NCBI RefSeq assembly: GCF_000003605.2
Contig: NW_003125913.1
Span: 54,862-96,398, forward strand
Reading direction: 5' to 3'
Source of the DNA: Saccoglossus kowalevskii
Taxonomy: Eukaryota; Hemichordata; Enteropneusta; Harrimaniidae
DNA length: 41,537 nt
This document shows, piece by piece, positions 3,870-41,280 of this stretch; position 1 is the stretch's first letter; every line of letters begins with the position of its first letter. Below the pieces are notes generated by a model. The model was not told where the DNA came from, searched no databases, and saw only the letters and a list, made by a program, of their open reading frames with translations. Made by a program: the position numbers and the translations under genes.

Positions 3870-4063
3870 CTAATCAACAAATACAGTAGATATTATGCAG
3901 TATTCCTCATCACTGCTCTCAACATCACCATCATACCGATACTGTGCTGATCTAGTAGTACTGGTGTCTTGGTCAGACCCGGGAAGCGTCTCTGATTGAG
4001 ACACCAAGTATTCTTGCCTACTCATTGTATTACTAGCATACACCATCTCCGCTGTCTTAGTCC
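3870..4063 (-). CDS. RNF146: Proposed RNF146 C-terminal exon
   Basis: Minus-strand open frame of 63 codons ending TAG at 3870-3872, after a candidate acceptor GTGCTACCACAG|GG. It includes SRQEYLVSQSETLPG and then RYDGDVESSDEEY. From memory of human RNF146, this resembles its C-terminal segment TQQRLLVSNANQTVP in order and spacing. Two stop codons separate it from exon 2 in this frame, so it needs an intron (about 122 nt if the donor is at 4185). The final residues overlap a fragment of the inverted-repeat element seen at 3105-3292. The exact splice sites are inferred. Confidence 0.6.
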
Positions 4064-5443
4064 CTGTGGTAGCACAGTGCCATTATCACGTTGCAAAGCA
4101 CATGTCCTCATGCTGGCCAATGACTTGATTGGCTTAGTACACTATTAGTATGACCCTCCCACAGCTCCTGGTGCCTGGTCTCCACTTGAATTTTCAGATG
4201 AATTTTGTTCGTCAGTTAGTAAAACTAAATCTTCTTCTTCTTCTTCTCTATTTTCACCTACAGTCATTGCACTAAAACGTGTTGCCATAGTATCAACATT
4301 ACCGGATCCCGGTTTCCTCTGCACTTTTTTTCCCTTAGGTGCTTGGCCACTGGTATCTTCAGTCTCCTCATCTCCATCACCTTGGCGATCATCAGAACTA
4401 TTTTTTTCCGATGGGAAATATTTGATTCCTGCGATTCCCTTCTTTGGTGCATTACGCAAATCACGTTTGATTCTTCGTCGCCGAGTTGGATCATTACGCC
4501 TAATTTGAATCATGTTCTCAAAATCAATTACATACAAGAAGCCTGCTATAAGTAACTCTATACATCTATTTTTACTTTTATATGCGTCTTCTAGTTCCAC
4601 ACTAGCACGTTCATCATACTGCCACCAACCATTGCGTCCCTCATAGTACCACTGATAACCCTCCTCCAACTCTACCTCTGGCTCTGGCTCTATTTCATCT
4701 TTGCAAGACTTTACCAGTACAGGGCAGTTTAGAAACTCTATTGGGATCTCTTTTCGACACAATGCACAACGTTTGCTCTGATTCGCAACACCTTTGACAC
4801 AGAGAAAGCAAAATATGTGTTCACATGGTAGCTTGACTGGTTGAATACAGCTTTGCAGGCATACAGCACATTCAAGAGGGATATCGACATCTGTTAAAAT
4901 GTTTTCCTCTGTCTCCTGGGTTTGGACATCTGTAAAATAAACAAAAACAAATGAAAAACAATTCAATACATGTACACCCAGGTATAATCACACACAAAAA
5001 GATGGCCAGACGATTGCAGGTAGCTGAATTTCTAATTAATCATATACACAAAAAGACAATGCTACACCTAGTTTGTGAATGATTTTAAAAAATAAATCTC
5101 AATTAATTGTACATGTATTACATATGTACGACTACGAGGCAAGATCACGTGGATACAGGCGACCACGACGCCAATGTGCATGTAGCGTTCGCATGAATTT
5201 ATTTGGAATTGAATATTGATATTTTTGTGCTTCATGGACAATTTAATTTGTTTTACTGCTATGTCGGTAAATGTTAAATTTTGAAGTGAAAACACACCAG
5301 ACTAAAAAACGATAACACAACCAGACACCACAGAATGAAATGTGCTTACCAGATTTTTTTCTTAATTTCGATTTTTTGTCTTTCTTCGCACGGTCCGTCT
5401 GTGCGCCCGCCAACACAGGTCGATTATACTCCTTCTCAGCCAT
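3870..5443 (-). CDS. RNF146: RNF146 (Iduna) E3 ubiquitin ligase, whole gene
   Basis: RING-type ubiquitin ligase that recognises poly-ADP-ribosylated proteins through a WWE domain. In vertebrates it destroys Axin and tankyrase and so promotes Wnt signalling. Exon 1 is 5350-5443. Exon 2 lies within 4145-4929. A further C-terminal exon is proposed at 3870-4063. Exons 1 and 2 join in phase 1, making a GAT codon. Reading exon 2 to its own stop gives 292 residues. Visible features: lysine-rich N-terminus, C3HC4 RING at residues 52-89 (C52, C55, C67, H69, C72, C75, C86, C89), and WWE at about 112-189 with the YYEGRNGWWQYDER core and the basic RRRRIKRD end. An acidic, Ser-rich tail follows. Vertebrate RNF146 is about 358 residues; adding the proposed last exon gives about 343. 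EIF3E starts divergently 552 bp away. Confidence 0.93.
4145..4929 (-). CDS. RNF146: RNF146 coding exon 2 (RING + WWE)
   Basis: The acceptor is TTATTTTACAG|ATGTCC. This exon carries the complete RING and WWE domains and the motif FSAMTV, which corresponds to the vertebrate FAHLQL segment, then an acidic stretch. An open frame runs to TAA at 4145-4147 (ending GAVGGSY). If the downstream exon at 3870-4063 is used, this exon would instead end near 4186 (TCAA|GTGGAG, phase 1) or at another GT close by. The upstream Met in the open frame (MNCFSF...) is intronic and is not the start. Confidence 0.9.
5350..5443 (-). CDS. RNF146: RNF146 coding exon 1
   Basis: ATG (MAEKEYNRP...) followed by a Lys/Arg-rich stretch ending KLRKKS, 31 codons plus one base. 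The donor is TCTG|GTAAGCAC, phase 1. Joined to the acceptor at 4929, the split codon becomes GAT (Asp), which restores the frame of the RING exon. The basic stretch could act as a nuclear localisation signal (inference). Confidence 0.85.
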
Positions 5444-5995
5444 GGTTCGACAGAAATTTAATAGATCACCAACTCATGTTTCGGAAAACAGTTTTGTTTT
5501 GGTTGTAGTACTTTGTTTTGATCGGAGTCGCCGAGTCTAAACGGAACCTAGCCGAACCACTAACGACACTACCACGGCGCAGAAGAAATACTCCCCTAAA
5601 TTTGAGCTAAATAATTTTTCTCGAAAAACAGAAGTATGTCACACAAGTATTTTATCCAACAAAAATAGAGACTTGTTTCTTAGAAGGCCACCTTTCTCAC
5701 TTCAGTGACAATATCCTACATCACAGATGGCCACTGGCACAAAATCATCCGCGCAGATAAAAATTTAGTTTCGTCCTATCGGTTAGAGGGTTGCTAAGTT
5801 TTTGAATACTGATATAGATGTATTACCGAGATAAGCATTAAATAGTGAAAGCATATTATTGAAGAATGAACAAAATTACACCAAGTGTAAAACTATGTCA
5901 GGTTTAATGAAAATAATTGAATTGCCACCCCTATCATAAAGTGAACGCTACCACTTCCTTGTCGCAAGGGAGTGTGGTTAATTGCTCAATTCAAA
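5444..5995. promoter_or_regulatory. Divergent promoter interval, RNF146 / EIF3E
   Basis: 552 bp separate the two start codons, which face away from each other, so both 5' UTRs and core promoters must lie here or overlap the first exons. No TATA box is obvious near either start. CACTTCCTTGT at 5953-5963 holds an ETS-like core (ACTTCC) and a pyrimidine tract. This interval is inferred from gene layout, not from a recognised promoter motif. Confidence 0.6.
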
Positions 5996-6085
5996 ATGGC
6001 GGAATTTGACTTAACTTCGCGTATTGGCCAATATTTAGACCGACATCTGGTTTTTCCTTTGTTGGAATTTTTGTCGGTGAAAGCC
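5996..6085 (+). CDS. EIF3E: EIF3E coding exon 1
   Basis: Residues 1-30. The start is TCAAAATGG, a favourable context, and MAEFDL matches the family N-terminus. Donor GCC|GTAAGT, phase 0. The open frame continues into the intron to 6271, but those codons are not part of the protein. Confidence 0.97.
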
Positions 6086-9000
6086 GTAAGTATACATCAC
6101 ATGTTTTCTCCTCAATGTGTTGTTTTTTTAATATACATATGTGCACATTTAGCGTATTTACTACATAGGTTCTCTGCTGTCACACGTGATTGCCAGATTG
6201 GTGCTGCTGGTTCCATGTGTTTTATGCATATGGACAATCTATCGATGTTAGTTGAAATAAAAATACAATAAATCTATCGCTGGCGACAGTACGTCATTTC
6301 TCTAACTGGCATAATTATCCTATATATGCTGTTGAGTTATAGAGACATTTTTAATTTGACCCCGACTTAGGTCATAAATACATTATAATAAGGAGTGAAC
6401 CATTCAGAAGCAGGGCGAGGGATAACGTGGCTATGCAATCCCTGTGTTTGCCCCAGTGCATCATGGGAAATGTTACCCCTCATGGGTGAGATTTTTCAGC
6501 GGATCCGCGGATTTCTAAGCCCCAGGGATCGATTTTCTGAAACATCTAAATCCAAAAAGAAAATTTTAGGGGGGTAAGAATACAAATCATTCACTGGAAG
6601 TAAACACGCTCTCGGGTCATTGTTGTCAGCTGCAAGAGACGTGTATCAGTGTATGGTCAAGGGTAGACAACTCGCGGTGTCTCAAATGCGGAATACTCAC
6701 AACTCTTTTCATCAGTGCAATCGTGAAATCCGAAGTGTTCAAAGTAATATGTAACGATTAACATGATTGGCTGGGTGTGTTCTGACGGGCAAATCAGTGA
6801 AGAGCTTTCATTTTTCTTTTTACCAGCGGCGCCATTTTATTGTTTCAATTGTTAGCTGCGTTGAATCGTTGTACAAGTTTTATGCAGCGTTAATGGTGAA
6901 ATTGGTTACAAAAGACAACCAGTCAGCTGTGCGAAAGATCGATAAAGACATTAGGAACAAATTTCATAGGGCATAGCTTGACAAGAAAGTGACTTTGACC
7001 GTGCGAATCGAGAAGAAAGATGAAGTGGTAACTGAAAAATTGAGTGACTTCATCGGCAAGTGCGAGGTCCCTTGAAAGGCGCAGTGTCTGTATTGTAACG
7101 ATTTGATCAACTACAGTTCTCGGACCTCGGCGACTTTACTTTCAGCTGAAAATTCTCATTCTCATCCCTGTACCCCCTACGTATAGTCCTGTTGTGTTGA
7201 TCAAGAATGTCTCTACACATAGCCCAATACACTAGCATAAATGACCAGCACAGCTGAAACAGATTCAACACCCCAAAAATGATTGACATGTTGTAACACA
7301 TAATGTCATGTGATAAAAATGCATCCAACAAACATCAAACAGAACAAAATATACAAACAAATTTCATATTTAGTTGATTTTCTTATAGATGTGTCCTGGT
7401 CATTCACTCCAGTACATCAAAGGAAGTAAATGAACAGAATCATAATTTGTTGGCTCAATTATGGCGAATTTGCATCACAAATAAAATGGAAATTGGCTAA
7501 TTTGCATACAAAATAAAATAGAATTTTAATTTATATAAAATATGTTTTTGTTTCACTAAAAATATGGGTAGGCAGGGTTATCATAAACAAAATTGTTTTC
7601 TTGTCATAGCATGTCAATCAAATCTCACCATTTCATAGCATGATGTAGGTTGGTGTGTAGGATTAAGAGATACCTATTAGAACTACGGTAAGTATATTTT
7701 TTGCTTGGGTACACTGATGCATGTTATGATTAACTTTTAAACTCACTTTTCGAAATGAATGTTATAATCACTATAGTCTCGTCCGTTTCTGTAAGTGAGT
7801 CACTATTCAGTTGTCAAATTGATCGCCATAATTTTCTCAAAGCTTTTGTGCATCATTTTTTAGCTCCGCTGTCGACTTTGTCGAGCGGAGCTTATCATAT
7901 GAGTGATTGTCCGTCGTCGTCCGTCGTCGTCGTCCGTGTCAATGTTTTACTTTTTCGACTTCTTCTTGAAAACTACAAGCCTGAATGCTTTGATACTTGG
8001 TGTATATGTACCTTGGGTAGACCTCTCTCAGATTTGTTCATTTGTAATGATATCTTTAATTCTCTAATTTTGGTGAATATTTTGTCATTTTTGGTAAAAA
8101 GTGATATTTTCGACTTCTTGTTGAAAACCGCAAGTCCAATTGCTTTGATATTAGATATATAGGTACTACATGTCGACCTCTCTCAGATTTGTTCATTTTG
8201 TAATGATATCTTCAATTCTCTAATTTTGGTGAATATTTTTGTAATATTTTTGGTAAAAAGTGATATTTTCGACTTCTTGTTGAAAACCGCAAGTCCAATT
8301 GCTTTGATATTACATATATAGGTACTACATGTGGACCTCTCTCAGATTTGTTCATTTTGTAATGATATCTTTAATTCTCTAATTTCGGTGAATATTTTTG
8401 TAATTTTTGGTAAAAAGTGATATTTTCGACTTCTTGTTGAAAACCGCAAGTCCAATTGCTTTGATATTACATATATAGGTACTACATGTGGACCTCTCTC
8501 AGATTTGTTCATTTCATAATGATATCTTTAATTCTCTAATTTTGATGAATATTTTTGTAATTTTTGGTAAAAAGTGATATTTTCGACTTCTTGTTGAAAA
8601 CCGCAAGTCCAATTGCTTTGATATATTATACATATAGGTACTACATGTGGACCTCTCTCAGATTTGTTCATTTTCTAATGATATCTTCTGTTCTTTAATT
8701 GCCATGTGCATTGCTAACAGCGGAGCTATCTCAGCCGACAGGCTGCTTGTTCTATTTTTATGTATGTATGCATTCATTTATTTTTTAATTTTGGGTCAGA
8801 TGAACAAAATCTCTTGAAATTTTCGGTGTAAAAAGTCATGATGTTGTCTAAAGTTTATTTGTTGCTCAAAAGGTTAATTTCAAATGTATTGTTTTGTTAC
8901 AGATTTATGAGGAACAGGAAATGCTGCAAGGAAAGCTTGACCTGCTCAGTGAAACAAATATGGTAAGTGTGTATATATGTGTTGTCGTAAACTGAAAATA

Positions 9001-12000
9001 ACGTCCTGTCTGCTATAAAATGTTGCATAATATGGTAGAATGCACGTGGTCTCAACCTGGCCTTTGTTGGGTATGGATGCATTACAAGATAATAGCAGAT
9101 AATACTAGTTGCTGACAACTTTTTTTATATTTACAATTTAGGTCGATTTTGCCATGGATGTCTACAAAAATCTTCATCCGGAAATAGAAGTGCCCCTACG
9201 TAAGTAGAAATAACCAATCTGCAAGTACTCCTAGATAAGTAGAAATAACCAATCTGCAAGTACCCCTAGCTAGGTAGAAATAGCCAATCAGCAAATTGTA
9301 CAGAATTCATCAAGTGTTGTAAAACAATATCTCACGTCAAAGTTTACATTAATTCCATGAATTATCCAAAGGGTGCATATCATTCTCATAGTGCTGGTGA
9401 ACATGTGACGTTCTTGCTCTATCCTCTGAATGCCCTCTGCAATTGTTTATCTCATGACCAAAAATTTATGTTGCCCAAATATGAGTAGTATTCCTCATAT
9501 TCGTTTTGAGCAGAGCGACAGGCTCCAATAGTTCCTGCTATTCCTATGGTCTTTGTCGGTATCCACGTTTTGAAGAGCAATTAGTTGGGTCATTGATGCA
9601 ATAAGTCCTGGATTAAATATTTGCTGAAATAATCAAGTTTCTTTTCATGTCCTTCGATATGGTGAGTTGGTCCTGGAGGTGGCCCACCAAAGTGGTTAAA
9701 AATATTGCCTAGTGCACGTAATTCGTCTTGGCCTTTATTCCCAAATATGCTAGACAGCTTTACGCCAAAGTACTTGTACTTCACTTTACTAGTTCATTCG
9801 TTTTATCTTCATTACATCATTGTATGTGAAGCCCTGAAAATCAAATTCTGTGTCGGTGATTGAGAAGTGAGATTCAGTTATTATCACTGCAAGTAAAGAA
9901 AGAAAACATGACAATTGTAGAGAAAGTTTGCTCATCAAATCAGAGCCATGCCATTTTATTACTCAAGTTAAAAAAAAAGAATTCAGCAATAATTGTTTTT
10001 AATGTTCATCTGAGGTTTCTCAACTGACATGGGTTTTGTATTTTGTGTGTTATAGAGCTGAGAGATAAAAGGCAAGAAGTTGTGTCAGAGTTGAAAAAGT
10101 TGCAAGGTGAAACAGAACCAATTGTAAAGATATTTGATGACCCCGAAGTGAACACTCAAGTGCAGAATACAAGAGATGGGAGACAGTTATTTGATTATCT
10201 TGCAAAAAGTCATGGTGTAAGTAATCTAGTATACATAGTCCCTGTGTTAAAACAGTTGCTTTGGACATACTTGGCATTGTGTTATATACTGTCATTTAGT
10301 GAAATGTTTGTATCAAGTCATGCATGGGCTGCACACTGCTTTGATTGGTGAAGCGTGAAGTCCTACATCAAATACAAAACTAATTTATTACTATTAAATG
10401 CATTGTATGCAGGGTTCTCCACAGATATTTTATTCACTGTATTGCATTGTGTGGAAGGTAAGACCCAAATGTCTGTTGTAAAAATTTAGTTATTTGATTT
10501 GATTTGAATTTATTTGTTTATTAATGCTTAATCTCAAAATTACAATCTTTCAGAAGAAAAAAATGGCATTGAGATGTCTTTACTCAGTCAAAATTGACCA
10601 TCTTCAAATGTGTATAGCATATTACCTAACCACAAATCTACTTGTGAATTACATGCCTTCATTTTTGATAAACATTATAGCATAGCATAACAGTGAATAC
10701 CATAGTGATTACCATATTCTAGACTTGTGCATTTTAGCAATGGCATTATGTTATTATCTTGAGGTGATCCCTGTCTATGGTGACAGGGTTCACTGTATAT
10801 GGTCTATGTAAGTGCATAGAATCCTTTGATTTGTTCAGCATATTGACATGTTCTTTTTTTTTTTTTCAGTTTGTACCAGAGATGTTAGACACGTTGTATA
10901 GATATGCCAAATTTCAATACGAGTGTGGGAATTATTCTGGGGCTGCTGAGTATCTATATTTCCACAGAGTGTTGGTGAGTGGTGTAAAACATCTCTAAAA
11001 TTATTGCTCATATTACTCTATTGTACTTTAGCTTGTTGAATTCCATGAATTTTTCACAAAAAATTTTTAGTGCATCATTCTTTGCACATTTTTATTTATT
11101 TTCAACAAAGGTTCTTCCCAATGATAAGAATGCATTGAGTTCATTATGGGGCAAGTTGGCGTCGGAAATACTGATGCAAAATTGGGAAGCAGCGTTAGAA
11201 GATCTTAACAGATTAAAAGACGTTATTGATTCCAATGTAAGTATTCACTACAAAATGATGTACAGATGTATTAGCGTATAAGAAAAAGTTTTCACTGTGT
11301 TGAATTTCATTGAATTTGATGTTAGAAGAATATTCACTAGGTAAAAAAACCAAATAGATTGGTAATTCTGAATATTTATTGAGTGTTACAGCTGAGTACC
11401 TCTAAAATCAGTTAAACGAAAGTGACGTAGTTTTGGTGCGCCAGGCAATCCATTTCCATCAATAAATAGCCAAATAATTTCATCATGTGTTTATAAATTA
11501 CTATGCCTGGACATATATTGCTAATCCAATTTGTGTGCTGTATGCAATTGTCATACATGTAGGTGAAAAAAAACACAGAAAATTATGTTAGAATACTGTG
11601 GAATACTTTATTTTCGCTGGAATTAATTTTCGTTTTGTATGGAATTTATTTTCACTGATTTTTGATAAGTTTAATGTGAAATATAGGAAAAAAAGTATAT
11701 TCACTGGATTTTATTTTCACGGAATCATCCCTTCAGCGAAAATAAATTCCAAGCGAAAATAAAGTATTCTACAGTATAACAATTGAACATGGAGGTGCAA
11801 TTAGTCCCTCTTCTCAAAGTACATATACTGTCATTGTTTGTTGTAATTCAGCATCCATGTATGTTTTTGAAGATATATATAATATAAAATAAAAAGATTG
11901 AAAGATCAATATCAACACATATTTAATGTTACATTCGTGTTCAAGTTTTGTGCATTTCGTCACACAAAAATTAAATATTATTCACAATGAGTGGTGCATT

Positions 12001-15000
12001 GATTCACCAGCTGTAGTATCTATGTGTGTGTTATGTACATGTTTTGCAGTCACTTGTAATCTAACCGTTCAGTGAAGGTGATGTTGTTGATGTTGCAAAC
12101 TAGCGAGACAAGTAGTTGACTGATTAGGGATGTTCAGATATGTTGTGCCTAGTGGTGTTAATAACATTTAGCAATCAGTAAACTAAAATAAAACAAGTAT
12201 TTGCTTGATGTTTTGATTTTCTGCGAAAAAAACAGGTGGTGTTCCTGGCCGGATACGTCTGTATGGAGGACAAAAGTTTGTTTTATAACACATTTAATGA
12301 GTCGGTGGCATCACTATATTGTTCATAGTATTTGTAGTGAGTGCTACGAATGAGCAATTATGATTGTGTAGTGTACAACAGTTTTTGATGTATTGATAAT
12401 AAGCTGCCAATAAATTGCCTTCAGTAGCATTCAGTCAATGAGTGAGATTGAAGTTCACCAAATACTCATTGATCAATTTATATTAAATGTATTAACACTT
12501 CATTTACGTAAGGTTGCCTTATATTATCTTTTGCAGGCATTTGTCACTCCCTTACAGAGTTTACAGCAGCGTACATGGCTAATCCATTGGAGTCTGTTTG
12601 TGTTTTTCAACCACCCTAAAGGAAGAGATGCTATCATTGATCTGTTTCTTTATCAACCCCCGTAAGTAATACTTATCTGGAACATGGGTATGGATACCAA
12701 GATGACACGCTTTCTGTTTTTTGTCTATTTCATTTGCGTGTGATATTTCATGATCGCCCCAATAGACAATTTTCGAGTTCCTTCGTTACCATAAAAACTT
12801 GTATGCTCTGATGTAAAAACATTTGATTTCGCTGCATAAACATTAGCTTATTGGGAACAAGGGAAATCAGTGAATAGTTGGCACAAGCTGAAAATCGCAC
12901 ACCCTTTCTCATACAGAATCAAAATCTTCGTATGTTTAGATGGTCCAATTGAAAATAATTCTGTTGCTTTGTACCATTGTATTAAAAGCTGCTCTTCTAA
13001 TACAGATTTTACAGTAATTCATCTTGATTGTTGATGGAGCATAGTGTCATAACAGTCAGAAATAGTCAGAAACTCGTACTGATATTATTTTTTTATAGAT
13101 ATCTTAATGCTATACAGACTTTATGTCCACACATACTGCGGTACTTGACCACAGCGGTGATCACAAATAAGAGACGACGAACCGTCTTAAAAGACCTTGT
13201 TAAAGTCATACAGCAGGAATCCTACACATACAGAGATCCCATCACAGAATTCCTAGAGTGTCTCTACGTCAATTTTGACTTTGATGGAGCCCAGCAGAAA
13301 CTAAGAGAATGCGAGACAGTAAGTTTGTTTTTGGTGTTTCATCTTGTACTACACTACACTATGCTGATGGTGTATTCCTGTACTACAGATAAACTGAATT
13401 GTAATCCTGAACGTCTACATGTTTTTTTCAATCTTAAAGGATTTGATGTTGCACGCATAGGTTTTGAATTGGTTTGTAAAGGAAACATTACATTTTTAGT
13501 GCACCGATTAATGTAGCGACCAGGGAACCTACCCAGTGAACTCATCTTTAATTAAATTTGTATATGTGAATTGTTAATATAGCATCCAAATGCCATTTCT
13601 ATTCTTGGGACTGTGAATAGGCAAGTCATATTTGTATTTGACATGTTCCTGTTTCAATACTTTCACTACATTGGCATCACCCCAATGAGTAATAGTCCCA
13701 TAAACCAATGAATGTTATGATGTTATCTCATCATTGTCTTTCATCACTGCTTTCTGTTTTACAGGTTTTAGTGAATGATTTCTTCCTGGTTGCGTGTTTG
13801 GACGATTTTATTGAGAATGCCAGGTTATTTATATTTGAGACATTTTGCCGAATTCACCAGTGTATTAGCATAAAGTAAGTGTATAGTGACCACCTCTATA
13901 TAAGGATCTCCTGCCTATAGTGACCACCTCTATATAAGGATCTCCTGCCTATAGTGACCACACCTATATAAAAACTTCCTGTCTATAGTGACCACTTATA
14001 GGTAGTTTCATGGCATACGTGAGAAACATGTGTAATAAAGACCACCTTGTCTTTTGTAACCACTCAGCAATATTTTTTGCAGATTTGCCTCTGTTTATAG
14101 ACAATAATAATTTAATAATACAATTTTTTTTTTCTCAAGCCAAACTTAATAAATTTTGATCAACTCAAATAAATGTGTTTTTGTTACAACAGTATAATCT
14201 CATTATATTATATCAAATGTATGAGTTGGTGATCCATAAAAAAATAACCAAAGCCCCATATAAAGATCACCTGTCTCCATAAAGACCACCTAAATAAAGT
14301 CCCTGGGGTGGTTGCTGTATGCAGACTCGACTGTACTTCCTACTTTTTGTACTTCTTACTTGAATATTGACAGTTGGATAGTTTTAAAAAAAAACAGGGA
14401 TAGAAATTAAGTTTTGCATTATTAATAAAAAATAGTATTCTGGGTTTTTTTGCATTTTGTATTCATTCAGAGTTGATCAAAAAATAAGAATGATATTGAT
14501 TTATTTCTATTTTCTTTCTATTTTCAAGTATGTTAGCTGAGAAATTGAACATGAGTCCCGACGAAGCTGAGAAATGGATTGTGAATTTGATTAGAAATGC
14601 CAGGCTAGATGCAAAGATAGATTCCAAACAGGTGAGTGTTCACCACTATCCTTACATAGGATGCCACACTGGTTTATGTTTGATGTGCATATGTATGCCC
14701 AGAGACTGGTTAGATAAAATTCTGTTGTATGCAGCCAAAGATAAAATAATGGCAATGTTTGCTGCTGGTGTTACTAATTATTACATGTATTGCTCTCTGT
14801 TGATAAAACAACTCATGGGCAATGTTGTCACAGTAGATCATGAACTAGTGCTGATCAGTGTACAGCATTTTTTTTTTTATCAGACATTCGTATGCTTGTT
14901 GGCAAAAATATAAAAAAATGACCTGACAGGAATGTGACAGGAATAAGACATGTGTAGCTTCCATAGACAAAAAAAATGGTTGATTTAAAATTAACAATAA

Positions 15001-17664: not shown

Positions 17665-17670
17665 AATAAA
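17665..17670 (+). terminator. Candidate EIF3E polyadenylation signal
   Basis: The first AATAAA after the EIF3E stop, in CCAGAATAAAAAAATG. It would give a 3' UTR of about 0.7 kb that includes the MITE at 17131-17552. A (TTTG)5 microsatellite follows at 17705-17724. Confidence 0.45.
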
Positions 17671-25365: not shown

Positions 25366-25576
25366 TACTGTAAAAAGATTAATTATTCACTGGATTTTAA
25401 TTTTGCTTATTTCGCTGACTGGAAAATGCACTAAATTAAAACCCATTGAATATGTACAATTTAGCATAGAACACATTATCTAAATGATAAAACCATGAAT
25501 TTAAAACCCACTGAATATGCCTGAAATGCTAAATCAGTGAAATTTAAACCCAGTGAAAATTAGTCATTTTACAGTA
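25366..25576. mobile_element. Palindromic MITE with TA flanks, related to 11593-11777
   Basis: TACTGTAAAAAGATTAATTA then TTCACTGGATTTTAAT at the left is mirrored at the right by ATTTAAACCCAGTGAAAATT then AGTCATTTTACAGTA. About 211 bp, no ORF. It shares CTGT...ACAG ends, TA flanks and the internal TTCACTGGATTTTA with the element in EIF3E intron 6. Confidence 0.7.
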
Positions 25577-27078: not shown

Positions 27079-27102
27079 TAGTTCCACTTCGTGGGAGTCG
27101 TC

Positions 27103-27202
27103 ATGGTTTTGTTAAAATCAGACTGGCTGTCCCTGTTCATGTGTCTCTGTCAGATACTTTCGTTGATTGGAAAGAACCACGTTAGCAGTGCAATTACTAA
27201 AG
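27103..27202 (+). CDS. R-spondin coding exon 1 (signal peptide, proposed)
   Basis: ATG with 33 codons: a short polar start (MVLLKSD), a hydrophobic core (WLSLFMCLCQILSLIG), then a polar segment ending SSAITK, with possible cleavage after SSA. An in-frame TAG at 27079 precedes it, so this is the first Met. The donor AAAG|GTAAGT is phase 1, exactly what exon 39948 requires (G+TA gives Val before CPRGC). There is no basic RxxR site between signal and first furin-like repeat, unlike many vertebrate R-spondins. Confidence 0.7.
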
Positions 27203-30200: not shown

Positions 30201-33200
30201 AGAGATCAATATTGACCAACTGTTGCAAATTGACATCTGATGCTGGTCAATTGCCACGTTGTCTTAACAAAGTTCTACCATGTGCACACAGAAGATGGGA
30301 GAACAAAGGCAACGGAAATTCAGGATGCTAATAAACAGATATGGATCGTTTGTGTATGTAACATACAACCAGGATAACAATATAAACACACTCGATGATT
30401 TCATTACGTAGTTAGCAAGGTATCGCTATGTTTGACTTTTGTTCTTGTCACTGGGAAAATCTCATGTGTAAGATACTAGAATGAGTGTACCCTCAGCTCA
30501 TGTCAATGGGGCACGGCAGTATTTTACTGTTTTATGGCAGCTCTGTTGAATGTGTGAAGAGCACTAAAACCTTTGTCAACACGAGTCGCAATAGTTCTGA
30601 ATGACCTTTTTTTTTCAAATGCAGTCTCATTGTTTTTGTAAATCGAAAAATCTAAAGTGGGGAAACTTTTCTAATCTACCGATCTCTTCAAAGAATTTCT
30701 ATTGGTTAATTATCCCCTTATATCTAGAATTGTTTACGGGGATTGAGTGAATGATATTTGTACAACATTTACGTAGGATCAACGCATCGAACTTTAACCC
30801 CTCGACGCTGTCCGATTTTGTTGGTGTTATGTATACCGTTCTATTGCTAAGCCGAGAAACAAGGTGTGTGACAGGGACAGGAAATTAAAAAAAATCCCTA
30901 TTACTATTATAAACTGACGACCTTCACGCATTGGACTTATTTGGGATAAAAGTGAGTGTCTAAGTACAGCAGTCACGTCGTAAATTTAAAGTGGTGTATC
31001 CCTTGTGGTGACCCACTTGGGACACAATCTGTCTCGTCAAATGTGACCAATGATTCACGAGTCTAGCCAGCTTACAAATTACCCACACAAAGTGATTCAC
31101 TCGTTGAACGCTGAACTATTCTAAACTTCGAGTTAGTTTATTGACCCCACCGCGTCTTACAACCAGGTTGGGACGAGCTGCGAACAGGGTCTCAAATAGC
31201 GGAGGGAGGTCAACCTCACGGTAGTACACCGCTGGTTTCCCCCCGGGCCCAAGAAGAGTAAAACCACAGATCAATATTGAATATTGTCAACAGAACCGAA
31301 CACAAAGCGGGAGTCAATAAAGCGAAAATATAAACCTACTTCAGTCGTTTTTACGATGCCTTATTTCGGTAATTCACAGCTAAGGTTTTATATCGTGGGT
31401 AAACATGGTATATCCACACATGGTTCGCCAACACATAGTTAATTAGACACTGCTGATAGATACGACTGAACATAAGTTGAAGAACACAGCACAATCGATT
31501 TATAGCTTTCATTATTGCAGATGCAGAGAAAATGAAGAAAAAAACATACGATGTAAAAAAGATTGGAGAAAACATGAACGCAATTCCGTTATAAATGTGA
31601 ATGAAGTATTTTCCCGGTGGCTATATATTTGTGATTATTTTGTCCTTCTAAAATGTTTACGATTTACCTGATTTTGGGGATCGATCTCCGTTAAATTGGG
31701 CATATCAACTTTAGTTGGGATTCTGTTTCAAATAGGGGTGTAAATATTTCGGAATGTGGAAGAACTGTTCACATTATTGCTCTCCTTCATTGTTTTTGTG
31801 CCAGATTTACTTCGTGAAGATATTGTTTTGTTTGTTTGTTTGTTTGTTTGTTTTTCTCTGTAATTTTGTTTCTGTATTTTTTCATCTGTGTGTAAGTCTT
31901 TGTTTTCTTCAAAATCATCTCTTCAGTTTCTAATGCTTAATCATTTTTTACAAAGTCATGGCAATGTGCTTGTATTCTGCCTTGATAGTAGCGGTATTGT
32001 CACTAGTCACCGAAATGGTTCGCTGAAATAACTAACCAATTAGCAACTGAGCACGTGTTCGCGTTCAACAAATCAAAATGCAATATGAACGTGTGTAGAT
32101 GAATATATTCGATTATAATTTCTCATCAACTAAAAGCCCAAGTTTTAGCTCACAGTTGAGTATTCGTTCCAAGAAACCGTGACATTTTAAGTTCTATTAC
32201 ATATGTACAATAACTGCTGTGATAGTCACAGCGCATGCGCATTAGTGACTTTCGTGTTCCACCAAACGAAAACAAACGCAAAAGCAACATGTTTAGTTTT
32301 TTTTGTTATAAATCATAATGCAATTTGGTCATAGACAACACTTGTTAACACTTTTCCCTGATACTCGAATTTGCGATACGTTACACCAGCACTGAATCGT
32401 AATGCGGAGTGATGTACAAGCAATCATCGAGAAATTGCTGGCCCGCATTGGATAAGTCTGCTGCGAGTATACGTTTCGTGATTACATATGCGGAGACGTT
32501 TCGAAGGAAAACGATACTTGTGGGATTCATGCTTTGCTGTGTGCATAGCTGACGTTAATGTGAATTAATGCCGACAGCTGTGCCGGTAACACAGTGGTTG
32601 ATACAATGCCATATGTTCTGAGGCCACGGCACACATCCCGTACTATGCTATTGAAATTGAATATCATGATCGCTATTCCAGAGCGAAAAAAAACTCGATC
32701 GGTCGTTGTGATTGAAAGTGAAAACTGTGGTAGGAATTTCTCGTTCAATAGGAGATGATCTATCTGGTCGGAAATATATGATATCATTCGATACAGCTAA
32801 TTTCTAAGATATGCTTGTTTCGTTTGCCGACAATCTCTAATGTAATGTAGTATCATCGAAATGTATTTGTGGCGCAGATGGTCACAATATTACAGTAGTA
32901 CACCTAACACTGACACCAAGCTATCATTGGATACGAACTACTAGTGAACAAAATGGTGGATATGATGACGTAATCTGACACATATATCATGTGACACAGA
33001 CGCACGGGGATGTTATTTTTGTGGTGCGTTTTTTTCGGAATATTAAAGGGTGGTGGCTACGATGATCGGGTCCCATGCTACATACAGCAATGGATATTTC
33101 TGACTGTAAAATGTGTAGTTTATTTACACATAATTAGAAGATACTGAACGCACGCGGTCGTGGCGAACACGGTATTCGAAAACAGGACACCACTTTTCTT

Positions 33201-36200
33201 AAATCAAGAATAACCGCCAGTGGCACTCATACATCAGTATCCTATAACCTCGCGCCCTTTAAGTCGTTTGTAACATTATTCAGTCAAGAAATGCTAAATT
33301 AATGTACGGTACTTACATGACCTTTGACATCCCTGTAGGTGATGAAGAATAGACGCGATCATCAGTGGAGATACGATGAAATAATACATCGTCACGCTGT
33401 GCAAACACTATGTACATAATTTTCAAAACCAGACAAACAAACACACAACTAATAATAATAACAATAACAACAACTATATACACACTCACAATATATATAT
33501 ATATATTATTATTATATTATAGTACAATTATTTAATGCAAACATTATATCCTGGAAAAGTACACTACGAACAAGCAAAATACCGCAGTTGCTCGTCCCTG
33601 CATTCTTTAATCAAACTTAAATCGCCTATGCTTTCTACCGACATATCACACATACTACCTCACATTATGAACTAGTCAACGGGTACACATTAGTTAGTCA
33701 TGAATATTTGTGGGCTTGCATTAAAAAAAAACTACAGCTTCATGGCAAATGAATATGGGCTGGGAGGGGAGTCGTATCTCGGGAAGGGGGATATCTTTCG
33801 CCTCCGACTCTCATACTGATTGTGCCAGGATCGATGGTGAGGGAGGTGGTGACGATGGGGTCACAATGAACTGTTCATCTTTGTGAAACGATTTGTGTTA
33901 CCCATGTCGCGTTGAACTATGTGTGGTCTGTCTCTAATATATAATGTCCTTCGTATTGAGGTGGGGTGTTTGACATTAACGTTACGATTGAAGGCTGTCA
34001 CGCTGCTGTTAGAACTAACACGGCAATACCAAGATTCCTTCGTCTCCAAAATAAACAATGCGCATAATATCATATCAACGTGATAGATGTGTTGACGTTC
34101 CTATTCAAGGCAAATAGTAGCAAATCACGTCAGTAATTAGGGGGTTTATCGCTACTAAAAACGCAGTGTTATCTGACAGCGGTTAACAGTTTTCAAAAGA
34201 ATTGGAATTCGTCCCACTCTCCAACCAAGTAGAGCGTACCATTTATTTCCCAAAGGTGGACAGGTGATACTTATTCAGAGAGTCGGGTAAAAGCTACCAC
34301 AGTGGAAACATGAAAGTCGAAAAGGAATGTTTTAGAAAAAAAAAACACACATTTTTGTACCGATAATTTGAATTGAAAGGGCTGATGAACCCGAAATTTG
34401 ACGAGCGTATTATATGATATTTATGGCCACAAGAACAAGGCGATTTTTATCGATCTGTTTTTTTTTTTTTTTGGCAACGTTCCACCCACCCGCCAGGAAG
34501 TCAGTTACCACTGTGGGAAACAACGCAGGTGTTGGAATAGGTTTATATGGTGAGACTGTTACAGTGCATGACACGTGATGTAATAATTAAATGTGTATTT
34601 GCGCATGCATTTTAGATTTCTGATACGTACTAATAAATCAAAAAAAGTCAGAGTTTGCGTGGTTAATTCTCAGCGAAACGACCACTGTTCAAAAAATCAT
34701 TCGCAATAATAATTCATGTGTGTGAACAAACATGGCGTCATAAAAATCGTCGTACAACTCTGTCAATTCTGTAATCTGTGGGTGCAAGGGTTATCGTGTT
34801 CTTACAAGTCATACAATTCATTCGTCACTGTTTAATCTAGTCTGTATCGTATATCAACGGGAAAAGACGTCACATGACTTATTGTCGAGAAGGTTTAATT
34901 ACCGACAAACGTCACTGATGTCCAATAAAAAAAATGGTTGACATTGAATACATGTACATAACCTGTACAGGCACATATCCCATAGGGCGCCACACATGGT
35001 ATGATATGTGTTTACCATAACGTAAATATGGATGCAATTTAAACGGAACGGCAGTTGACTAAAATGACAATGTGAAAATTTTTGTAGAAATACAATTCTG
35101 TGAAATCAATTGCTGTACAGACGGTATCCAATAGTAGCTGAGGGAAAGAGGGTGAGTTACGGATTACTGAATTACGGTGGTAAATTGCTGAAACTGGACC
35201 ACGAACACATAAGAAGGGTCGGTTTCGTACAAACTCGCACGTAACTGTAGTTTCACTGTGATGGCTCACACTCGCCACATGCCGTGTATGCATTGTCAAG
35301 TGAGCAAAACGTGTTGTGCTAAAAATATCTGGCGCAGAATACCGTATAGTGCCATACTATACCCATACCTACTTACAGTGTCACAAAGCATGTGAACACA
35401 TCGACTCACCCAGCGGAAACAATTTGCGACATTCGTCTGCTTCCACTCCCCGACTCAGCTTGTACTTGTAAAAAAAAAATAAAAAAAATAAAAACATTTT
35501 TGTGAGAGAGAAACTTTCCGGTATTGATTTCTTGCCGTACAATCGTGCCACAGAATCCACATTTCATTACGTATTGGTTTCAGGAAACTGTTTAGTTGTT
35601 GGGTTTGACTCAGTGCGGGATCCACTTTATCAGCATCGCTGTCTTCGAAGATTGTAACATCTTTTTATTGTATGTATGTACGATCACATGTTCCTTGTCT
35701 AGTATCTCGATATGAGGTAAATTTAATGTCACGTCATAATCTTATATAATTTGAAAATAGTTAAAGTAAAATACTAAGACATGTTTTATCTGCCACTTTC
35801 CTATGAATGTCGGGATAGCTCTGACAGGTGGTTGCCGACTGAATAATATTAATGTCACATCATTCGTATTTCACAAATTTAAATATGATTCCATTAACAT
35901 TTTAACTGTTATTCGGCCTTGTACGACGTCAAATCTGCACACCGTATGACGATTAACCAATCTCTCCACTGCCAAATCGACTCTTCTGCTGGTGCCGTGT
36001 TTCTAATACAAAATGTCCACACGATATTGTATGTGTTCGTGACACTACAATGCGGTTCATTTTTTGGCCTTGACTTGGCGCAGTAATTTGTTATCGCCAA
36101 CGCAATTAGGGATTACCCTCACATCGCCCGTAGTTTAAGAACTTGGCACATTCTTTGAAAGTTCCTGATTGTAGATTGCACATCGATGTCATGAACAGGT

Positions 36201-39200
36201 TTTTAAGGAGAATAATAAACACTAAACTAACGCAATACGTAATAGGCACTTCGCTATGTGTTTGAGTAGGGAAATGTGAGTTCGCAATTTGTAGTTTTTA
36301 TTTGAACGTCGTGTGACTTTGCAAAATACGAGAATACGTTTCCCATCAAACCTGGGCATATCGTCCGTAGTTTACTTACACTCTGAGAACTGTTTATGGG
36401 GCTTGTTACTAAACAAAAACAAAGGAACCACAGGGAAATACACCGCTAACAAGAAACAGCACTTTACAGCAAACTATAGCATTCTATTTATGAAATAAAT
36501 TGCTTCCAGGGGCAAGAAACCGATATTTGCCCGTTACAAACGAAATCCTAAGAGTCTATGGCTGGAACACAATCGAGGTCGACCACTGACCGAACTGAAG
36601 TATCGCAACAAGCAGTCAAATCCGTGTTTGTTAATTCTTTTCTCAAGGGCACACAAGGGGCATTGGATGAATTGAATGGACGAATCGTAATTCTATACCC
36701 CAACTCGCTCCATTATTTTGTTTGCTAAAAGCTAACATTTCAGTTGCTTCGAACCGTAACAAAGTTGTTGTCGTCCTCATTTTACTGTGCCAGATGATGG
36801 ATAGAGCGATGAGTGCTACTTAAACCTGCCCAACAGCGTTATCATATACTTTACCCACAATGGTATCATTCAGATCGAAAAAGCAGACTACAATTTCCGA
36901 CTGAAAGTTGTTAAAATAAAGTTTTTAAATTAAAACCTTGAAATAGATTGTACTAGCATCACAGTTATTAAAACATCTGACGATAGTTTCTGAACTACTT
37001 TGTACCAAGTCTCAGAAAGTACAATATAAAGTCATTTCAGGTTAATATACCAAACGTTTCACACGCAATTTGAAAATTGTATATTCTGTGCCTGTCCACA
37101 TTTGGTCCAATTCCTGAATGTCGTGAAATAGTTAAATCAAATATTTGTGCACGCCGTATCGCTATTGGACGATACAAGGACGCAGCAAGTACAACTTTTT
37201 CTCTCAGTAACAAGGTGTTTACCCATCAACATCTTGAATGTAAAAATCACGTATGTCAGCATTTTATGATATGCGTATGTGTGTTGGGTTTTTCATTACG
37301 TCCAGGCTGACCACTCGAGACGATAGATGTATGTCAAGTAATAATACCCAGTCAAATTTCAGTAGTCACGTGATCTGAAGTAATGTTTCTGTCTCATATA
37401 ATGTTAACTTGGATAGCTGCATCGGCAGACATATTATACAGTAGTTTTTATTTTTGCAATACGCATGAAAGAAACGCAAGGTGGTTTCTTGGAGTCGCTT
37501 GAAAGATAACACCGTGTAGAGATACTGGGATCGATCCCCGGGTTCGATCCCCAAGGAATACATATTACTCGTGTTATTTGAACTATTCTTGTGAATAATT
37601 ATCGTCCCTTTCCGTCAAGGGATTTGAACTAGTCACTATAGTGGAACTCTTTTTTTCAGTTTGACCAAAAAAAAACTAGATTAAAACTCAAAACCCGACA
37701 AATGCGCAACGCCACTGTAAGATGACGCGCTCCCTGTCACGCCACGTCGCACTGCGCCAAGAAATGACAGCTTCAGTGAACGCGCTCTTACAATGACTAG
37801 TTGGACAATATATTGTACGTCGAGATGATGGTTGCACGAATATTTCATTTTCCGGGTAACCCAATCCTTGACGAATTCACGAATAAGCAATGTACTCATC
37901 CCGATAAGCCTTACCTAGCCCAAGGGGTGATACCATCGTCTCGCGAGACGACCACCCATACACAAAATGGTGCCTTCAATGTCACACTTTGTGAGCGGAG
38001 GTAGTCGTCTCAATACCTTCACCATTCGGAATGTTACCACGAGACAGACAGCTGTCAACGTCGTTTCAGTTCAGCTGCTAACACCGTCAAAGTAAGTTCT
38101 AGTGTACATTACAGCTTGAGATGAGGGAGCCATACTCGTCTCTTCATCTACGCCCGAGTACCGATTAGACTCCCAATCCACGGCCCCTACGTTATAAAGT
38201 GATAGAAAATGGAATCATTGTCATGTCTGAATATTCACTAAATCATAGACGATCACAAAAAACCTATCTCAAGTTCTATATATATGCTAAATCCGCCTTT
38301 CCCATTTACATTGGATAGCTCGCACTTTTAAAAACAATTGAATTCCCCCCTCCCGTTTGAAAAAAACACACCTTTCTTTGAAAATGTAAACACAGGATTT
38401 TACAATAAAAACACAACAAGGTCAGCATAATGGTTCGTGTAGCTTTGTTCAAAGTTGACTCTAAAATGCCTGTCTGCGACTGTAATGCTTTGTCACAACA
38501 CTTGGCTGCTTTCTTATAATTCCTTTCTCTCCTTTTTCTTCAATTTGAGAGACCGATAAGTGATGTCATGACCTTTTACCGAGTAATACTGATCGAAATA
38601 ACAGGATCATCTCAGTTAACAATACGTTTCAAAATAGTCCAAATTCTTAGGGACGTTCACACTTCACTTAGTCCATTCTCAGCCTCTATTCTTCTGTTCC
38701 TCGATGATTGCACTGATAAAATGCCTGTCACAAAACCCAATGTTGAACCACTGTGTCATGCACGTTAATTTGTTAGCATCATTCAAGTTGTCAGACGTTG
38801 TACTTCAAGAACTGGCTGCTAAATGACACCACTTACACGCATGTTGCGACATAGAGGGCGCTCATTGCAGGACATTTTGGTGCAATGGCACCTGTAATAT
38901 ACATTGTCTATTAGTTATCTGTTGAGACGAAGTTCGAAAATGACGATTATTAATTCGAGCTACATCCTTTCGTGTGTGTCAATTTTGTTTTCGTTTTGAT
39001 AAATATGACCGTCCAGCGGCCATTTTTACTTTAACGAGACTACAACCGGTTCTGAGAGATGATCGAGTCGATTTCATTATGTTTTGGTATTTTATCAAGA
39101 TCCGATACATGATTGCTGATTGGTGGTAGTGATACGATATCAACCTAAGCTTGTTACATAATCTGATCTAATGTGGCTGTCTAGCGGCCATTTTGATAAT

Positions 39201-41280
39201 CAAAGCATTAAACACCAAAACTTGGGCCTGTCTGCAACCAACTGCATGAAATGACTCACCCTATTTTTATCGAACTTGGTGACAATATATATAAGGTTGT
39301 AGATATAGATGCACATTGTCATTTTTCGGGATCCAATTCGAAGACCGACTGACGGCAATTATTTGTCAATATGCTACTTTTTTCACTTGATCAACACAAT
39401 AGTGACTTCATATTCTACTATTGCCAGGGACTATGTCATTTACTTGTTCACAGGCAAGGGCGGACTGATTCTCTGTGCGTTCAGGAAAAATCCCACAGAA
39501 TGGCCGCCCGGTCTAAGGCCGTCGGGCTTCAGCACTAATTGTTCCAAACTGTAATAGCCAACATTCAGAATGACTACTCAGAGTAATTATTGGTGGCAAA
39601 GTCAGTTACAAATAACCGTAGTGTAGATATTTATGTATAAAAACAATGTCTAGATGTTCAGTTTTGTTTAGGAGATGCTAGTGATTTTTTAGTCGTTTTT
39701 GAATATTAGTGTTATTGAGGTCGGGAATAAACAATCATAAATACTAGTAGTTTATCTGCGTGGGATTTGTTATGACAGACAATGTAGCACTATTGCCCAT
39801 CCCCGGTTTTTGAGCGGGCCTATTGACGGGAAAGTCTACCGTCGTTCTTTTTTTTTGTCCCAGTCCCTCCCTAACGATCGTGTGTTGTGTGATGACAACT
39901 ATCATTTAACGCGCATTATACTAACAATATGGACATTATTTTTCTAGTATGCCCAAGAGGTTGTAAGACTTGTTCCACATTCAATGGTTGTATCACGTGT
40001 CGTCCAAGGCTATTCCTACTTTTGCATCGAAGTGATATGAAACACATTGGTATATGTACGCATGCGTGTCCTATTGGTTTCTATGGGCAACGAGGGGTGG
40101 ATATGAGCAGATGTTACAGTAAGTTGATGTCACTGTATCACCAATGACAATGATAGTTTGGATTCTCGCCGAACATAAACAAAGACAAGTTATGAAACAC
40201 AACATTCAGATTCCTACAAATTCCGACGGGAATTCAAGATGGCCGCCAATATAATAAATATTGATAAACTAGTTGCATTCGGTACCAGACAGCGCCCATA
40301 GCGGGGAATATATTCAATTATTCTTTTCGCCTTATACCAATAGTAATGTTACATTTTGTGTTTCTCTATTTGTTTTACAGGATGCCGTGTTGACAATTGC
40401 GAGGAGTGTTTCAGTCGAAATTTCTGTACACGTTGCAAGTCGCCATATTTTTTGTGTAATGGAGAATGTGTGGAAAGTTGCCCGGATGGAACGTACCCGG
40501 ATGAGAAAACAGGCGAGTGTAGACGGACAGGTAAACGATCACGCGCAAATGCCGCTAATATGCTTTGTAGTTTATAATTAGCTTTTAAAATATAACATTT
40601 TCATTAATGGTGTTATCATTTTCAAATTACAAATTACACCTCTCTTAACAGGCTGAGTCGCACCAAGCTTTATTAAAACACGCTTATGTTTCAATAGGTT
40701 TTGATGTTGATTTCATTTACAATGTCATGTAAATTTCACTAATTTACCGCGCACCTATCACACTATAGCATTGCATCAGCCACACAAGCCAGTCACCAAT
40801 CACATTTCTAAAATCAGTAATTTAGAGTATGGAAAATAAATGTGGTTTAAATTATCTTGCTTGATTGCAAAGCTCATACGGTTAAATGAGTTCCATAAAG
40901 ACAATTGCTTAAACTCTTCTAACACAGTCTAATACGGGTGTCGCCACCACACATATACATTAGCAGCTGTAATCATATGGGACATTCGACAAACTGCGAA
41001 AGTGTCTAGATTGACCACAATACATACAATGCCAGTATAATGATAGTAATAAGCACATCGTTTTAATTATTTCTCTGTCTTTGTTTATTTGTAGTTGACT
41101 GCGAAGTCGCCACATGGAGTGGTTGGGGAATGTGTTTAAAAATGGCTAAAACTTGTGGCTTTAAATGGGGACTTGAGACACGAACGAGAGAAGTGTTAAT
41201 TCAGCCAACTTTCAACGGAAGATACTGTCCGACAATAACAGAGTCAAGACAATGCCGAATGAAACCAAGACATTGTCCAG
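27103..41280 (+). CDS. R-spondin, secreted Wnt agonist (3' end outside window)
   Basis: R-spondins are secreted proteins that bridge LGR4/5/6 and the ZNRF3/RNF43 ligases, clearing the ligases and raising Frizzled levels. Visible coding exons: 27103-27202 (signal peptide), 39948-40118 (furin-like 1), 40381-40530 (furin-like 2) and 41095-41280 (TSP1). All joins are phase 1, giving 202 complete residues plus one base. The domain order and one-domain-per-exon layout match vertebrate RSPO1-4. The furin-like 2 hairpin CFSRNFC keeps both Phe residues that contact LGRs. The basic C-terminal tail and stop are missing because the window ends first. With one copy I cannot assign it to RSPO1, 2, 3 or 4. 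Confidence 0.93.
27950..28985. repeat. 60-bp minisatellite, 17 copies
   Basis: Unit: TATAGATCATAAGATCACAC, then CAGTCCACGCCATGGTACCA, then GTACTATACACATACCAATA. There are about 17 copies with high identity. Copy 2 has a small ACCAGT insertion, copy 10 to 11 a short deletion. The pairs at 28141-28260 and 28261-28380 are nearly identical as 120-bp blocks (sharing CATAACAACA and TAGTCC), a higher-order repeat. Units stay in frame, so ORFs of 89 and 118 codons appear, but they are repeat translation. Confidence 0.97.
31827..31850. repeat. (TTTG)6 microsatellite
   Basis: Six perfect TTTG units. A similar (TTTG)5 lies at 17705-17724. Confidence 0.95.
38940..39360. repeat. Degenerate dispersed repeat with GCGGCCATTTT blocks
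   Basis: GTCCAGCGGCCATTTTTACT near 39012 and GTCTAGCGGCCATTTTGATA near 39178 are about 170 bp apart in the same orientation. Each is followed by AT-rich DNA with a TTATCAAGATC or TTTATCGAACTTGG motif. This looks like two diverged units of a dispersed repeat. Ends are uncertain. Confidence 0.35.
39948..40118 (+). CDS. R-spondin coding exon, furin-like repeat 1
   Basis: Acceptor TTATTTTTCTAG, phase 1. CPRGCKTCSTFNGCITCRPR, then LFLLLHRSDMKHIGIC, then CPIGFYGQRGVDMSRCY. Cysteine spacing and NGC, LF..L, GxC and DM..C motifs match RSPO family repeat 1. The Arg that contacts ZNRF3/RNF43 (Arg66 of human RSPO1) is present in LHRSD. The partner Gln (Gln71) is His here (MKHIG). Donor TACA|GTAAGT, phase 1. 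Confidence 0.95.
40381..40530 (+). CDS. R-spondin coding exon, furin-like repeat 2
   Basis: Acceptor TTTGTTTTACAG. CRVDNCEECFSRNFCTRCKS, then FLCNGECVESCPDGTYPDEK, then GECRRT. FSRNF preserves the two LGR-binding Phe residues (FSHNF in human RSPO1). Donor ACAG|GTAAAC, phase 1. Length 150 nt. Confidence 0.95.
41095..41280 (+). CDS. R-spondin coding exon, thrombospondin type 1 domain
   Basis: Acceptor TTGTTTATTTGTAG. DCEVATWSGWGMC, then TCGFKWGLETRTREVLIQP, then YCPTITESRQCRMKPRHCP. The WSGW motif is a standard C-mannosylation site. TSP1 domains of R-spondins bind heparan sulphate. Donor CCAG|GTGAGT, phase 1, so at least one more exon follows to the right. Confidence 0.94.

What the first reader, a model, noticed from the sequence alone, without database searches (positions are those of the whole stretch)
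3870..41280. RNF146 - EIF3E - R-spondin linked block, apparently the pre-duplication ancestor of two vertebrate loci
Seen: the three genes are consecutive. Established: in humans RNF146 lies near RSPO3 at 6q22.33 and EIF3E lies next to RSPO2 at 8q23.1 (EIF3E-RSPO2 fusions recur in colorectal cancer). Inference: one ancestral block was duplicated, and each vertebrate copy lost a different neighbour. RNF146 and R-spondin both boost Wnt signalling, so their tie across EIF3E may reflect shared regulatory DNA.
Basis: partly seen in the sequence, partly recalled or inferred. Interest (0 to 1): 0.85.

Follow-up and report, generated by a model that had tools for sequence, protein, structure and literature searches.

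The report
Acorn-worm-like RNF146–EIF3E–R-spondin gene trio
Three neighbouring genes in what looks like an acorn worm genome join two gene pairs that humans keep on different chromosomes, so they probably preserve a gene order older than the vertebrate duplications, but no shared control of the three genes is shown.

Summary
RNF146 (minus, 5443-4145 or 5443-3870), EIF3E (plus, 12 coding exons, 5996-16953) and R-spondin (plus, three domain exons, 39948-41280, cut by the contig end) lie in a row. No Pfam domain was found in six frames of the EIF3E-RSPO gap. RNF146 and EIF3E are head to head, 552 bp between start codons. EIF3E lies upstream of RSPO on the same strand, as it does to RSPO2 in mammals. 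The 572-Mb genome is inferred to be ambulacrarian, probably an acorn worm. Each gene is single-copy in the searchable assembly. RSPO1-4 lie at 1p34.3, 8q23.1, 6q22.33 and 20p13, a pattern shared by three other families in the same published table. The pre-duplication-block inference is therefore likely but not proven: no second invertebrate could be examined. Shared RNF146-RSPO regulation is not supported: CpG content changes about 195 bp past the EIF3E poly(A) signal. A mini 'Wnt-operon' of PTPRK, RSPO3 and RNF146 is already suggested in print; the listings of eight open-literature searches showed no account of the trio.

The parts
5350..5443 (-). RNF146 coding exon 1 (start codon at 5443, 31 codons + 1 base)
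   Evidence: donor GTAAGC, frame joins exon 2
4145..4929 (-). RNF146 coding exon 2: RING and WWE domains, stop 4147-4145 in the 292-aa reading
3870..4063 (-). probable alternative 3' coding exon of RNF146, stop at 3872-3870; its donor in exon 2 is not settled
   Evidence: acceptor and 63-aa open frame; likeness to the human C-terminus judged from recall only
5444..5995 (.). 552-bp head-to-head interval, probable two-way RNF146/EIF3E promoter (CpG o/e 0.94)
   Evidence: transcription starts unknown
5996..16953 (+). EIF3E, 12 coding exons: 5996-6085, 8903-8962, 9142-9199, 10056-10216, 10870-10974, 11111-11236, 12537-12661, 13099-13318, 13765-13874, 14529-14631, 16156-16296, 16912-16953
17665..17670 (+). 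AATAAA, the only such hexamer on the plus strand in 16901-18200; probable EIF3E poly(A) signal
17701..39947 (.). 22-kb interval between EIF3E and the first RSPO domain exon: no Pfam domain in six frames, CpG o/e 1.03
34423..34549 (+). candidate RSPO signal-peptide exon (hydrophobic N-terminus, phase-1 donor GTGAGA); unproven
   Evidence: one of 7 start codons that passed the filter; no Pfam match
39948..40118 (+). RSPO furin-like repeat 1 exon
40381..40530 (+). RSPO furin-like repeat 2 exon
41095..41280 (+). RSPO thrombospondin type 1 exon; the gene continues beyond the contig end

Best explanation
This is an ordinary chromosomal stretch of a non-vertebrate deuterostome, probably an acorn worm, that keeps an old gene order RNF146(-) EIF3E(+) RSPO(+). 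Shown: the order, the strands, the intact EIF3E and RNF146 frames, one copy of each gene in the searchable assembly. Inferred: the block was present before the vertebrate genome duplications; afterwards the RSPO2 copy kept EIF3E, in the same order and strand as here, and the RSPO3 copy kept RNF146. Inferred mechanism of the tie: RNF146 is held to EIF3E by a shared two-way promoter; EIF3E is held next to RSPO because RSPO has a long upstream regulatory domain that cannot be cut off without harm; RNF146 is linked to RSPO only as a passenger through EIF3E. The common Wnt role of RNF146 and RSPO need not be the cause.
For: Gene identities and order. No Pfam domain between EIF3E and RSPO, with working positive controls. 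Copy number: RNF146 has 4 hits, one at 9.2e-193 and three weak ones over the RING part; RSPO has 5 hits, 3 being the exons here and 2 read by eye as repeats of other genes; EIF3E has 11 of 11 hits on this contig. Ambulacrarian origin: mitochondrial AAA at Lys sites of ND1, ATA at COX1 sites that I recall as usually Ile, posterior Hox11/13-type homeodomains by recall. EIF3E and RSPO2 are head to tail in mammals, since a deletion between their first introns fuses them (PMC5508203 passages). RSPO3 and RNF146 lie in one 1.5-Mb interval (PMC6996932 passage) and at one duck locus (PMC12802297 passage). RSPO, NKAIN, KCNQ and RIMS, 4 of the 25 families of one table, each have members on 1p, 6q, 8q and 20 (PMC6585022). 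CpG domains.
Against: Only one non-vertebrate genome was examined, so ancestry and a lineage-specific gathering cannot be told apart by direct comparison. The human RSPO3-RNF146 order and strands (recalled) differ from the window and need at least one inversion. PMC6585022 rejects whole-genome duplication for this region and dates one RSPO duplication before the echinoderm split; PMC12111769 groups protostome RSPO with RSPO4, whereas the window copy is nearest RSPO2 in my small comparison (0.52 against 0.42-0.47; three of four vertebrate rows wholly or partly recalled). The left 54.9 kb of the contig is withheld and its right end cuts RSPO. CpG depletion also continues about 3 kb beyond the RNF146 stop, which I cannot explain.
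Confidence: 0.75

Rival explanations
1. The trio is held together by one shared regulatory landscape: RSPO enhancers in or near EIF3E also serve RNF146, a Wnt mini-operon. (Not exclusive with ancestry of the block.)
For: RNF146 and RSPO both raise Wnt signalling (recalled); a mini 'Wnt-operon' of PTPRK, RSPO3 and RNF146 has been suggested (PMC6996932 passage). A 22-kb interval without Pfam domains lies before the RSPO domain exons.
Against: CpG o/e is 0.41 in the EIF3E body and on the 3' side of RNF146 but 1.03 in the EIF3E-RSPO gap, with the change-point at 17,860, about 195 bp past the EIF3E poly(A) signal. This is the mark expected of broadly expressed methylated genes beside a separately regulated, unmethylated developmental gene; methylation itself was not measured.
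Confidence: 0.1
2. Gene order here is a coincidence or lineage-specific rearrangement: the resemblance to two human loci arose by independent moves.
For: Gene order inside chromosomes is heavily scrambled: comparison of two hemichordate genomes showed no apparent microsynteny (PMC11175523, legend of S3 Fig). Orientation of RNF146 to RSPO differs from human (recalled).
Against: Rough arithmetic, no tool result: with 20,000 genes in random order, EIF3E next to RSPO and RNF146 within two genes has odds near 2e-8, or about 1e-5 if all three are confined to one of 24 linkage groups. EIF3E-RSPO also agrees in order and strand with mammals.
Confidence: 0.1
3. The RSPO family had already split before ambulacrarians, and this copy is an orthologue of RSPO2 alone, so the block is not a single pre-duplication ancestor.
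For: PMC6585022 places one RSPO duplication before the echinoderm-vertebrate split. The window copy is most like RSPO2, and RSPO2 is the copy next to EIF3E.
Against: One RSPO in the searchable assembly; one r-spondin is listed as cloned in the hemichordate S. kowalevskii (PMC5786327 passages). Under this rival the tie of RNF146 to RSPO3 in vertebrates would be unexplained.
Confidence: 0.12

Closest known systems
Mammalian EIF3E-RSPO2 neighbourhood (8q23.1 in human)
   Same: EIF3E upstream of RSPO on the same strand
   Different: No RNF146 there, and the head-to-head partner of EIF3E is EMC2 in human (both recalled)
Vertebrate RSPO3-RNF146-ECHDC1 neighbourhood (6q22.33; duck chromosome 3)
   Same: RNF146 linked to an R-spondin
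   Different: No EIF3E there; RNF146 lies downstream of RSPO3 on the same strand (recalled), here upstream on the other strand. No enoyl-CoA-hydratase-type domain among the Pfam matches in 1-3869; beyond that the flank is withheld
PTPRK-RSPO3-RNF146 mini 'Wnt-operon' suggestion (PMC6996932, Discussion passage)
   Same: Wnt-acting genes kept close
   Different: Suggested for the RSPO3 locus; no PTPRK seen in this window; the CpG domains here speak against joint control
Conserved microsyntenic blocks of deuterostomes, such as the pharyngeal gene cluster (PMC11175523 passages)
   Same: Neighbours kept together since early deuterostomes or bilaterians
   Different: That case is compared over many genomes; this one over one genome and published vertebrate loci

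Membership tests
RNF146 | RING followed by WWE domain | tested here: met
RNF146 | tankyrase-binding motifs in the tail | tested here: inconclusive
   no match to a simple pattern in the 292-aa form or in the 3' exon; the splice model of the tail is unsettled and the pattern is recalled
EIF3E | eIF3_N, PCI and EIF3E_C domains over full length | tested here: met
R-spondin | two furin-like repeats followed by TSP1 | tested here: met
   (TSP1 over its Pfam cut-off, slightly under it)
R-spondin | signal peptide and basic C-terminal tail | tested here: inconclusive
   candidate signal exon only; the tail lies beyond the contig end
Pre-duplication ancestral block | each gene single-copy in a non-vertebrate | tested here: met
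   searchable assembly only, part withheld
Pre-duplication ancestral block | same linkage in several unrelated non-vertebrates | not testable with these tools
   no other animal genome held; scans of the viral and prokaryote collections for eIF3e gave no relative
Pre-duplication ancestral block | the vertebrate loci belong to one fourfold paralogy region | not tested
   taken from PMC6585022, Table 1, not computed here; that paper itself rejects 2R
Genomic regulatory block with bystander gene | conserved non-coding elements of one gene inside or beyond the neighbour | not testable with these tools
   needs a second related genome
Two-way promoter pair (RNF146/EIF3E) | head-to-head genes with transcription starts less than 1 kb apart | tested here: inconclusive
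   552 bp between start codons, CpG o/e 0.94 there; transcription starts unknown

The most novel reading that the evidence does not exclude
EIF3E and R-spondin form a very old fixed gene neighbourhood of a Wnt agonist: R-spondin control DNA spread over the 22-kb interval, and perhaps EIF3E introns, has kept the pair together since the deuterostome or bilaterian ancestor, and RNF146 came along through the EIF3E promoter. The same tie would set the stage for the recurrent EIF3E-RSPO2 deletions of colorectal cancer.
Probability: 0.25. Interest if true: 0.65.

Novelty: new member of a known kind. Interest (0 to 1): 0.42.

Why it matters
If the trio is ancestral it gives an outgroup map for the RSPO paralogy region: it explains why EIF3E sits beside RSPO2 and RNF146 beside RSPO3, predicts which neighbours RSPO1 and RSPO4 lost, and bears on the dispute over whether the RSPO family grew by genome duplication. 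It also offers a test of whether the EIF3E-RSPO tie is kept by R-spondin regulatory DNA.

Tried and rejected
Scans for eIF3e relatives in the viral and prokaryote contig collections, in the hope of stray animal contigs, found none. A hidden gene between EIF3E and RSPO: 0 of 12 six-frame pieces gave a Pfam family at E <= 0.01. Earlier, 14 of the 16 open frames of 90 aa or more that overlap the gap were sent (2, 10, 2; the two inside the 60-bp tandem array were not): two weak hits, Uso1_p115_head (E 0.0087) and DUF4233 (E 0.011), both far under their cut-offs. A DUF2715 match on the left end (E 3e-5, 24.4 bits, above its cut-off of 22) covers about bases 551-883, inside the 30-bp minisatellite, and is dismissed as a repeat artefact. 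RNA families and tRNAs: none. A second RSPO on contig C292 was considered and rejected: its frames read, by eye, as PCSK-type furin repeats. A lancelet origin was considered because of the rearranged mitochondrial genome and dropped: the published Asymmetron inversion runs from trnL(uag) to nad6 (PMC2034537 passages), and codons and Hox genes point elsewhere. Species name not reached. RSPO exon 1: 7 start codons passed my filter, one plausible, unproven. Literature: 8 of 10 searches used, judged from their listings. The most direct: (at least three of R-spondin, RNF146, EIF3E, synteny) listed 1 paper, on engineered cancer rearrangements; (four of RSPO3, RNF146, ECHDC1, RSPO2, EIF3E) 0; (microsynteny and EIF3E) 1, on spinach; (RSPO3 and RNF146) 10, of which I looked into 2. 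None listed names the trio in a non-vertebrate. What I saw of papers: PMC12111769 abstract, section 3.2 and a word search; PMC6585022 passages and the first part of Results; passages only of PMC6996932, PMC12802297, PMC5508203, PMC11175523, PMC5786327, PMC4244043, PMC7269912 and PMC2034537; all others only as listings.
Full report
What is in the window. The window is the right end of contig C1863 (54862-96398 of 96398) in an assembly of 572,110,611 bases in 4830 contigs. Three genes are present. RNF146 is on the minus strand: coding exon 1 at 5443-5350, exon 2 at 4929-4145 with RING and WWE, 292 aa; best PDB match RNF146 at 1.3e-58. A second possible 3' coding exon, 4063-3870, has a proper acceptor and a 63-aa open frame whose letters resemble the human C-terminus as I recall it; its donor is not settled. 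EIF3E is on the plus strand with 12 coding exons, 446 aa, no broken frame, and a PDB eIF3 subunit E match of 6e-238 over residues 1-443. R-spondin is on the plus strand with exons for furin repeat 1, furin repeat 2 and TSP1, 171, 150 and 186 bases, with phase-1 borders; the PDB match to R-spondin-2 is 1.3e-55. At the positions that I recall as contacts of human RSPO1, the copy keeps R66, F106 and F110 but has His at Q71 (read from the RSPO1 alignment).

Arrangement. The RNF146 and EIF3E start codons are 552 bp apart, head to head. EIF3E ends at 16953 and the first RSPO domain exon starts at 39948. No Pfam family was found at E <= 0.01 in any of 12 six-frame pieces of 17701-39947; the same read-through method on the EIF3E body and the RSPO exons found their domains. 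A gene of small exons or unknown family could still be missed. A candidate signal-peptide exon at 34423-34549 would put the RSPO start about 17 kb from EIF3E.

Copy number. RNF146: 4 hits, one at 9.2e-193 and three weak ones over the RING part. RSPO: 5 hits, three being the exons here, two read by eye as repeats of other genes. EIF3E: 11 hits, all here. Part of the assembly, the left 54,861 bases of this contig included, is withheld, so these are counts for the searchable part.

Which animal. The mitochondrial contig (17,037 bases) reads AAA at conserved lysine sites of ND1 and ATA at COX1 sites that I recall as usually Ile; TGA is read through in COX1, and COX1 lies on the other strand from ND1 and COX2. 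Of 36 homeodomain hits I read 10 frames out of the 14 best loci: contigs C132 and C2346 carry Hox genes, among them posterior Hox11/13-type homeodomains, and I recognised no protostome signature; these calls rest on recall. Together this points to an ambulacrarian, and AAA as Lys to a hemichordate rather than an echinoderm (code facts recalled). I put about 0.8 on an acorn worm.

Meaning of the order. Mammalian EIF3E and RSPO2 are head to tail, since a deletion between their first introns fuses them (PMC5508203); the window has the same order and strands. RSPO3 and RNF146 lie within one 1.5-Mb interval (PMC6996932) and at one duck locus (PMC12802297). Table 1 of PMC6585022 puts RSPO1-4 at 1p34.3, 8q23.1, 6q22.33 and 20p13, and NKAIN, KCNQ and RIMS also on 1p, 8q, 20 and 6q: 4 of 25 families with that pattern. 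A single block that was multiplied and then lost different neighbours is the simplest account. Against it, the same paper rejects whole-genome duplication here and dates one RSPO duplication before the echinoderm split, and PMC12111769 groups protostome RSPO with RSPO4. One genome cannot decide between these.

Is it more than chance? Rough arithmetic, not a tool result: with 20,000 genes in random order the two adjacencies have odds near 2e-8; within one of 24 linkage groups, near 1e-5. Gene order inside hemichordate chromosomes is otherwise well shuffled (PMC11175523, S3 legend).

Regulation. CpG o/e is 0.41 on the 3' side of RNF146 (1013-4900, most of it beyond the RNF146 stop), 0.89 over the shared promoter and EIF3E intron 1 (4901-8900), 0.41 in the EIF3E body (8901-17700), 1.03 in the gap to RSPO (17701-39947) and 0.86 over the RSPO exons (39948-41537); TpG and CpA are higher in the EIF3E body (1.37, 1.38) than in the gap (1.22, 1.20). 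The best single change-point after 8901 is 17,860, about 195 bp past the AATAAA at 17,665, likelihood ratio 188, not calibrated, tandem array included. In an animal with gene-body methylation this is what a broadly expressed pair beside an unmethylated developmental gene looks like (inference; methylation was not measured). It speaks for two regulatory domains and against one shared by RNF146 and RSPO. It leaves open that RSPO elements in the gap keep EIF3E in place.

Literature. A mini 'Wnt-operon' of PTPRK, RSPO3 and RNF146 is suggested in PMC6996932. The listings of eight searches name no trio in a non-vertebrate; most subscription papers and all supplements are outside what I could read, so this is weak evidence of novelty.

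Verdict. Observation confirmed; block ancestry likely (0.75); shared Wnt regulation not supported. The odds for the rivals overlap, since shared control and ancestry do not exclude each other. It is a new member of a known kind, conserved microsynteny, of moderate interest.

Noticed in passing
window 4901-41537: Sharp CpG domain structure: depleted in the EIF3E body and on the RNF146 3' side, normal at their shared promoter and through most of the RSPO side, with the switch about 195 bp past the EIF3E poly(A) signal.
   Followed up: partly
window 1013-3869: CpG depletion continues about 3 kb beyond the RNF146 stop although no Pfam domain other than a repeat artefact was found there; a long 3' UTR or an unseen methylated gene would fit.
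   Followed up: no
window 7861-8728: An 868-bp element in EIF3E intron 1 with 12-bp perfect terminal inverted repeats and an internal 157-bp tandem array. Of 1159 first-look candidates for its left 91 bases in the genome 40 were scored, giving 41 matches (this copy included), 40 of them full or nearly full length at 96-100% identity: probably a young, abundant non-autonomous element.
   Followed up: partly
window 1-1012, 15789-16040, 27954-28988: Minisatellite arrays with about 30-, 79- and 60-bp units; another array with translated repeats lies on C292 (L015).
   Followed up: no
L017, L048, L049 (G000:C4830): Mitochondrial contig with COX1 on the other strand from ND1 and COX2 and COX1 codons rich in G and T, so the inversion is probably not recent; a frame that I read by eye as ND2 lies upstream of ND1.
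   Followed up: partly
G000:C132 and C2346: Hox-type homeodomains on two contigs: five hits on C132 between 27 and 331 kb and two of posterior type on C2346.
   Followed up: no
window 39948-40118: The residue matching RSPO1 Gln71, a ZNRF3/RNF43 contact as I recall, is His here, while the two LGR-contact Phe residues (in the next exon) are kept.
   Followed up: no
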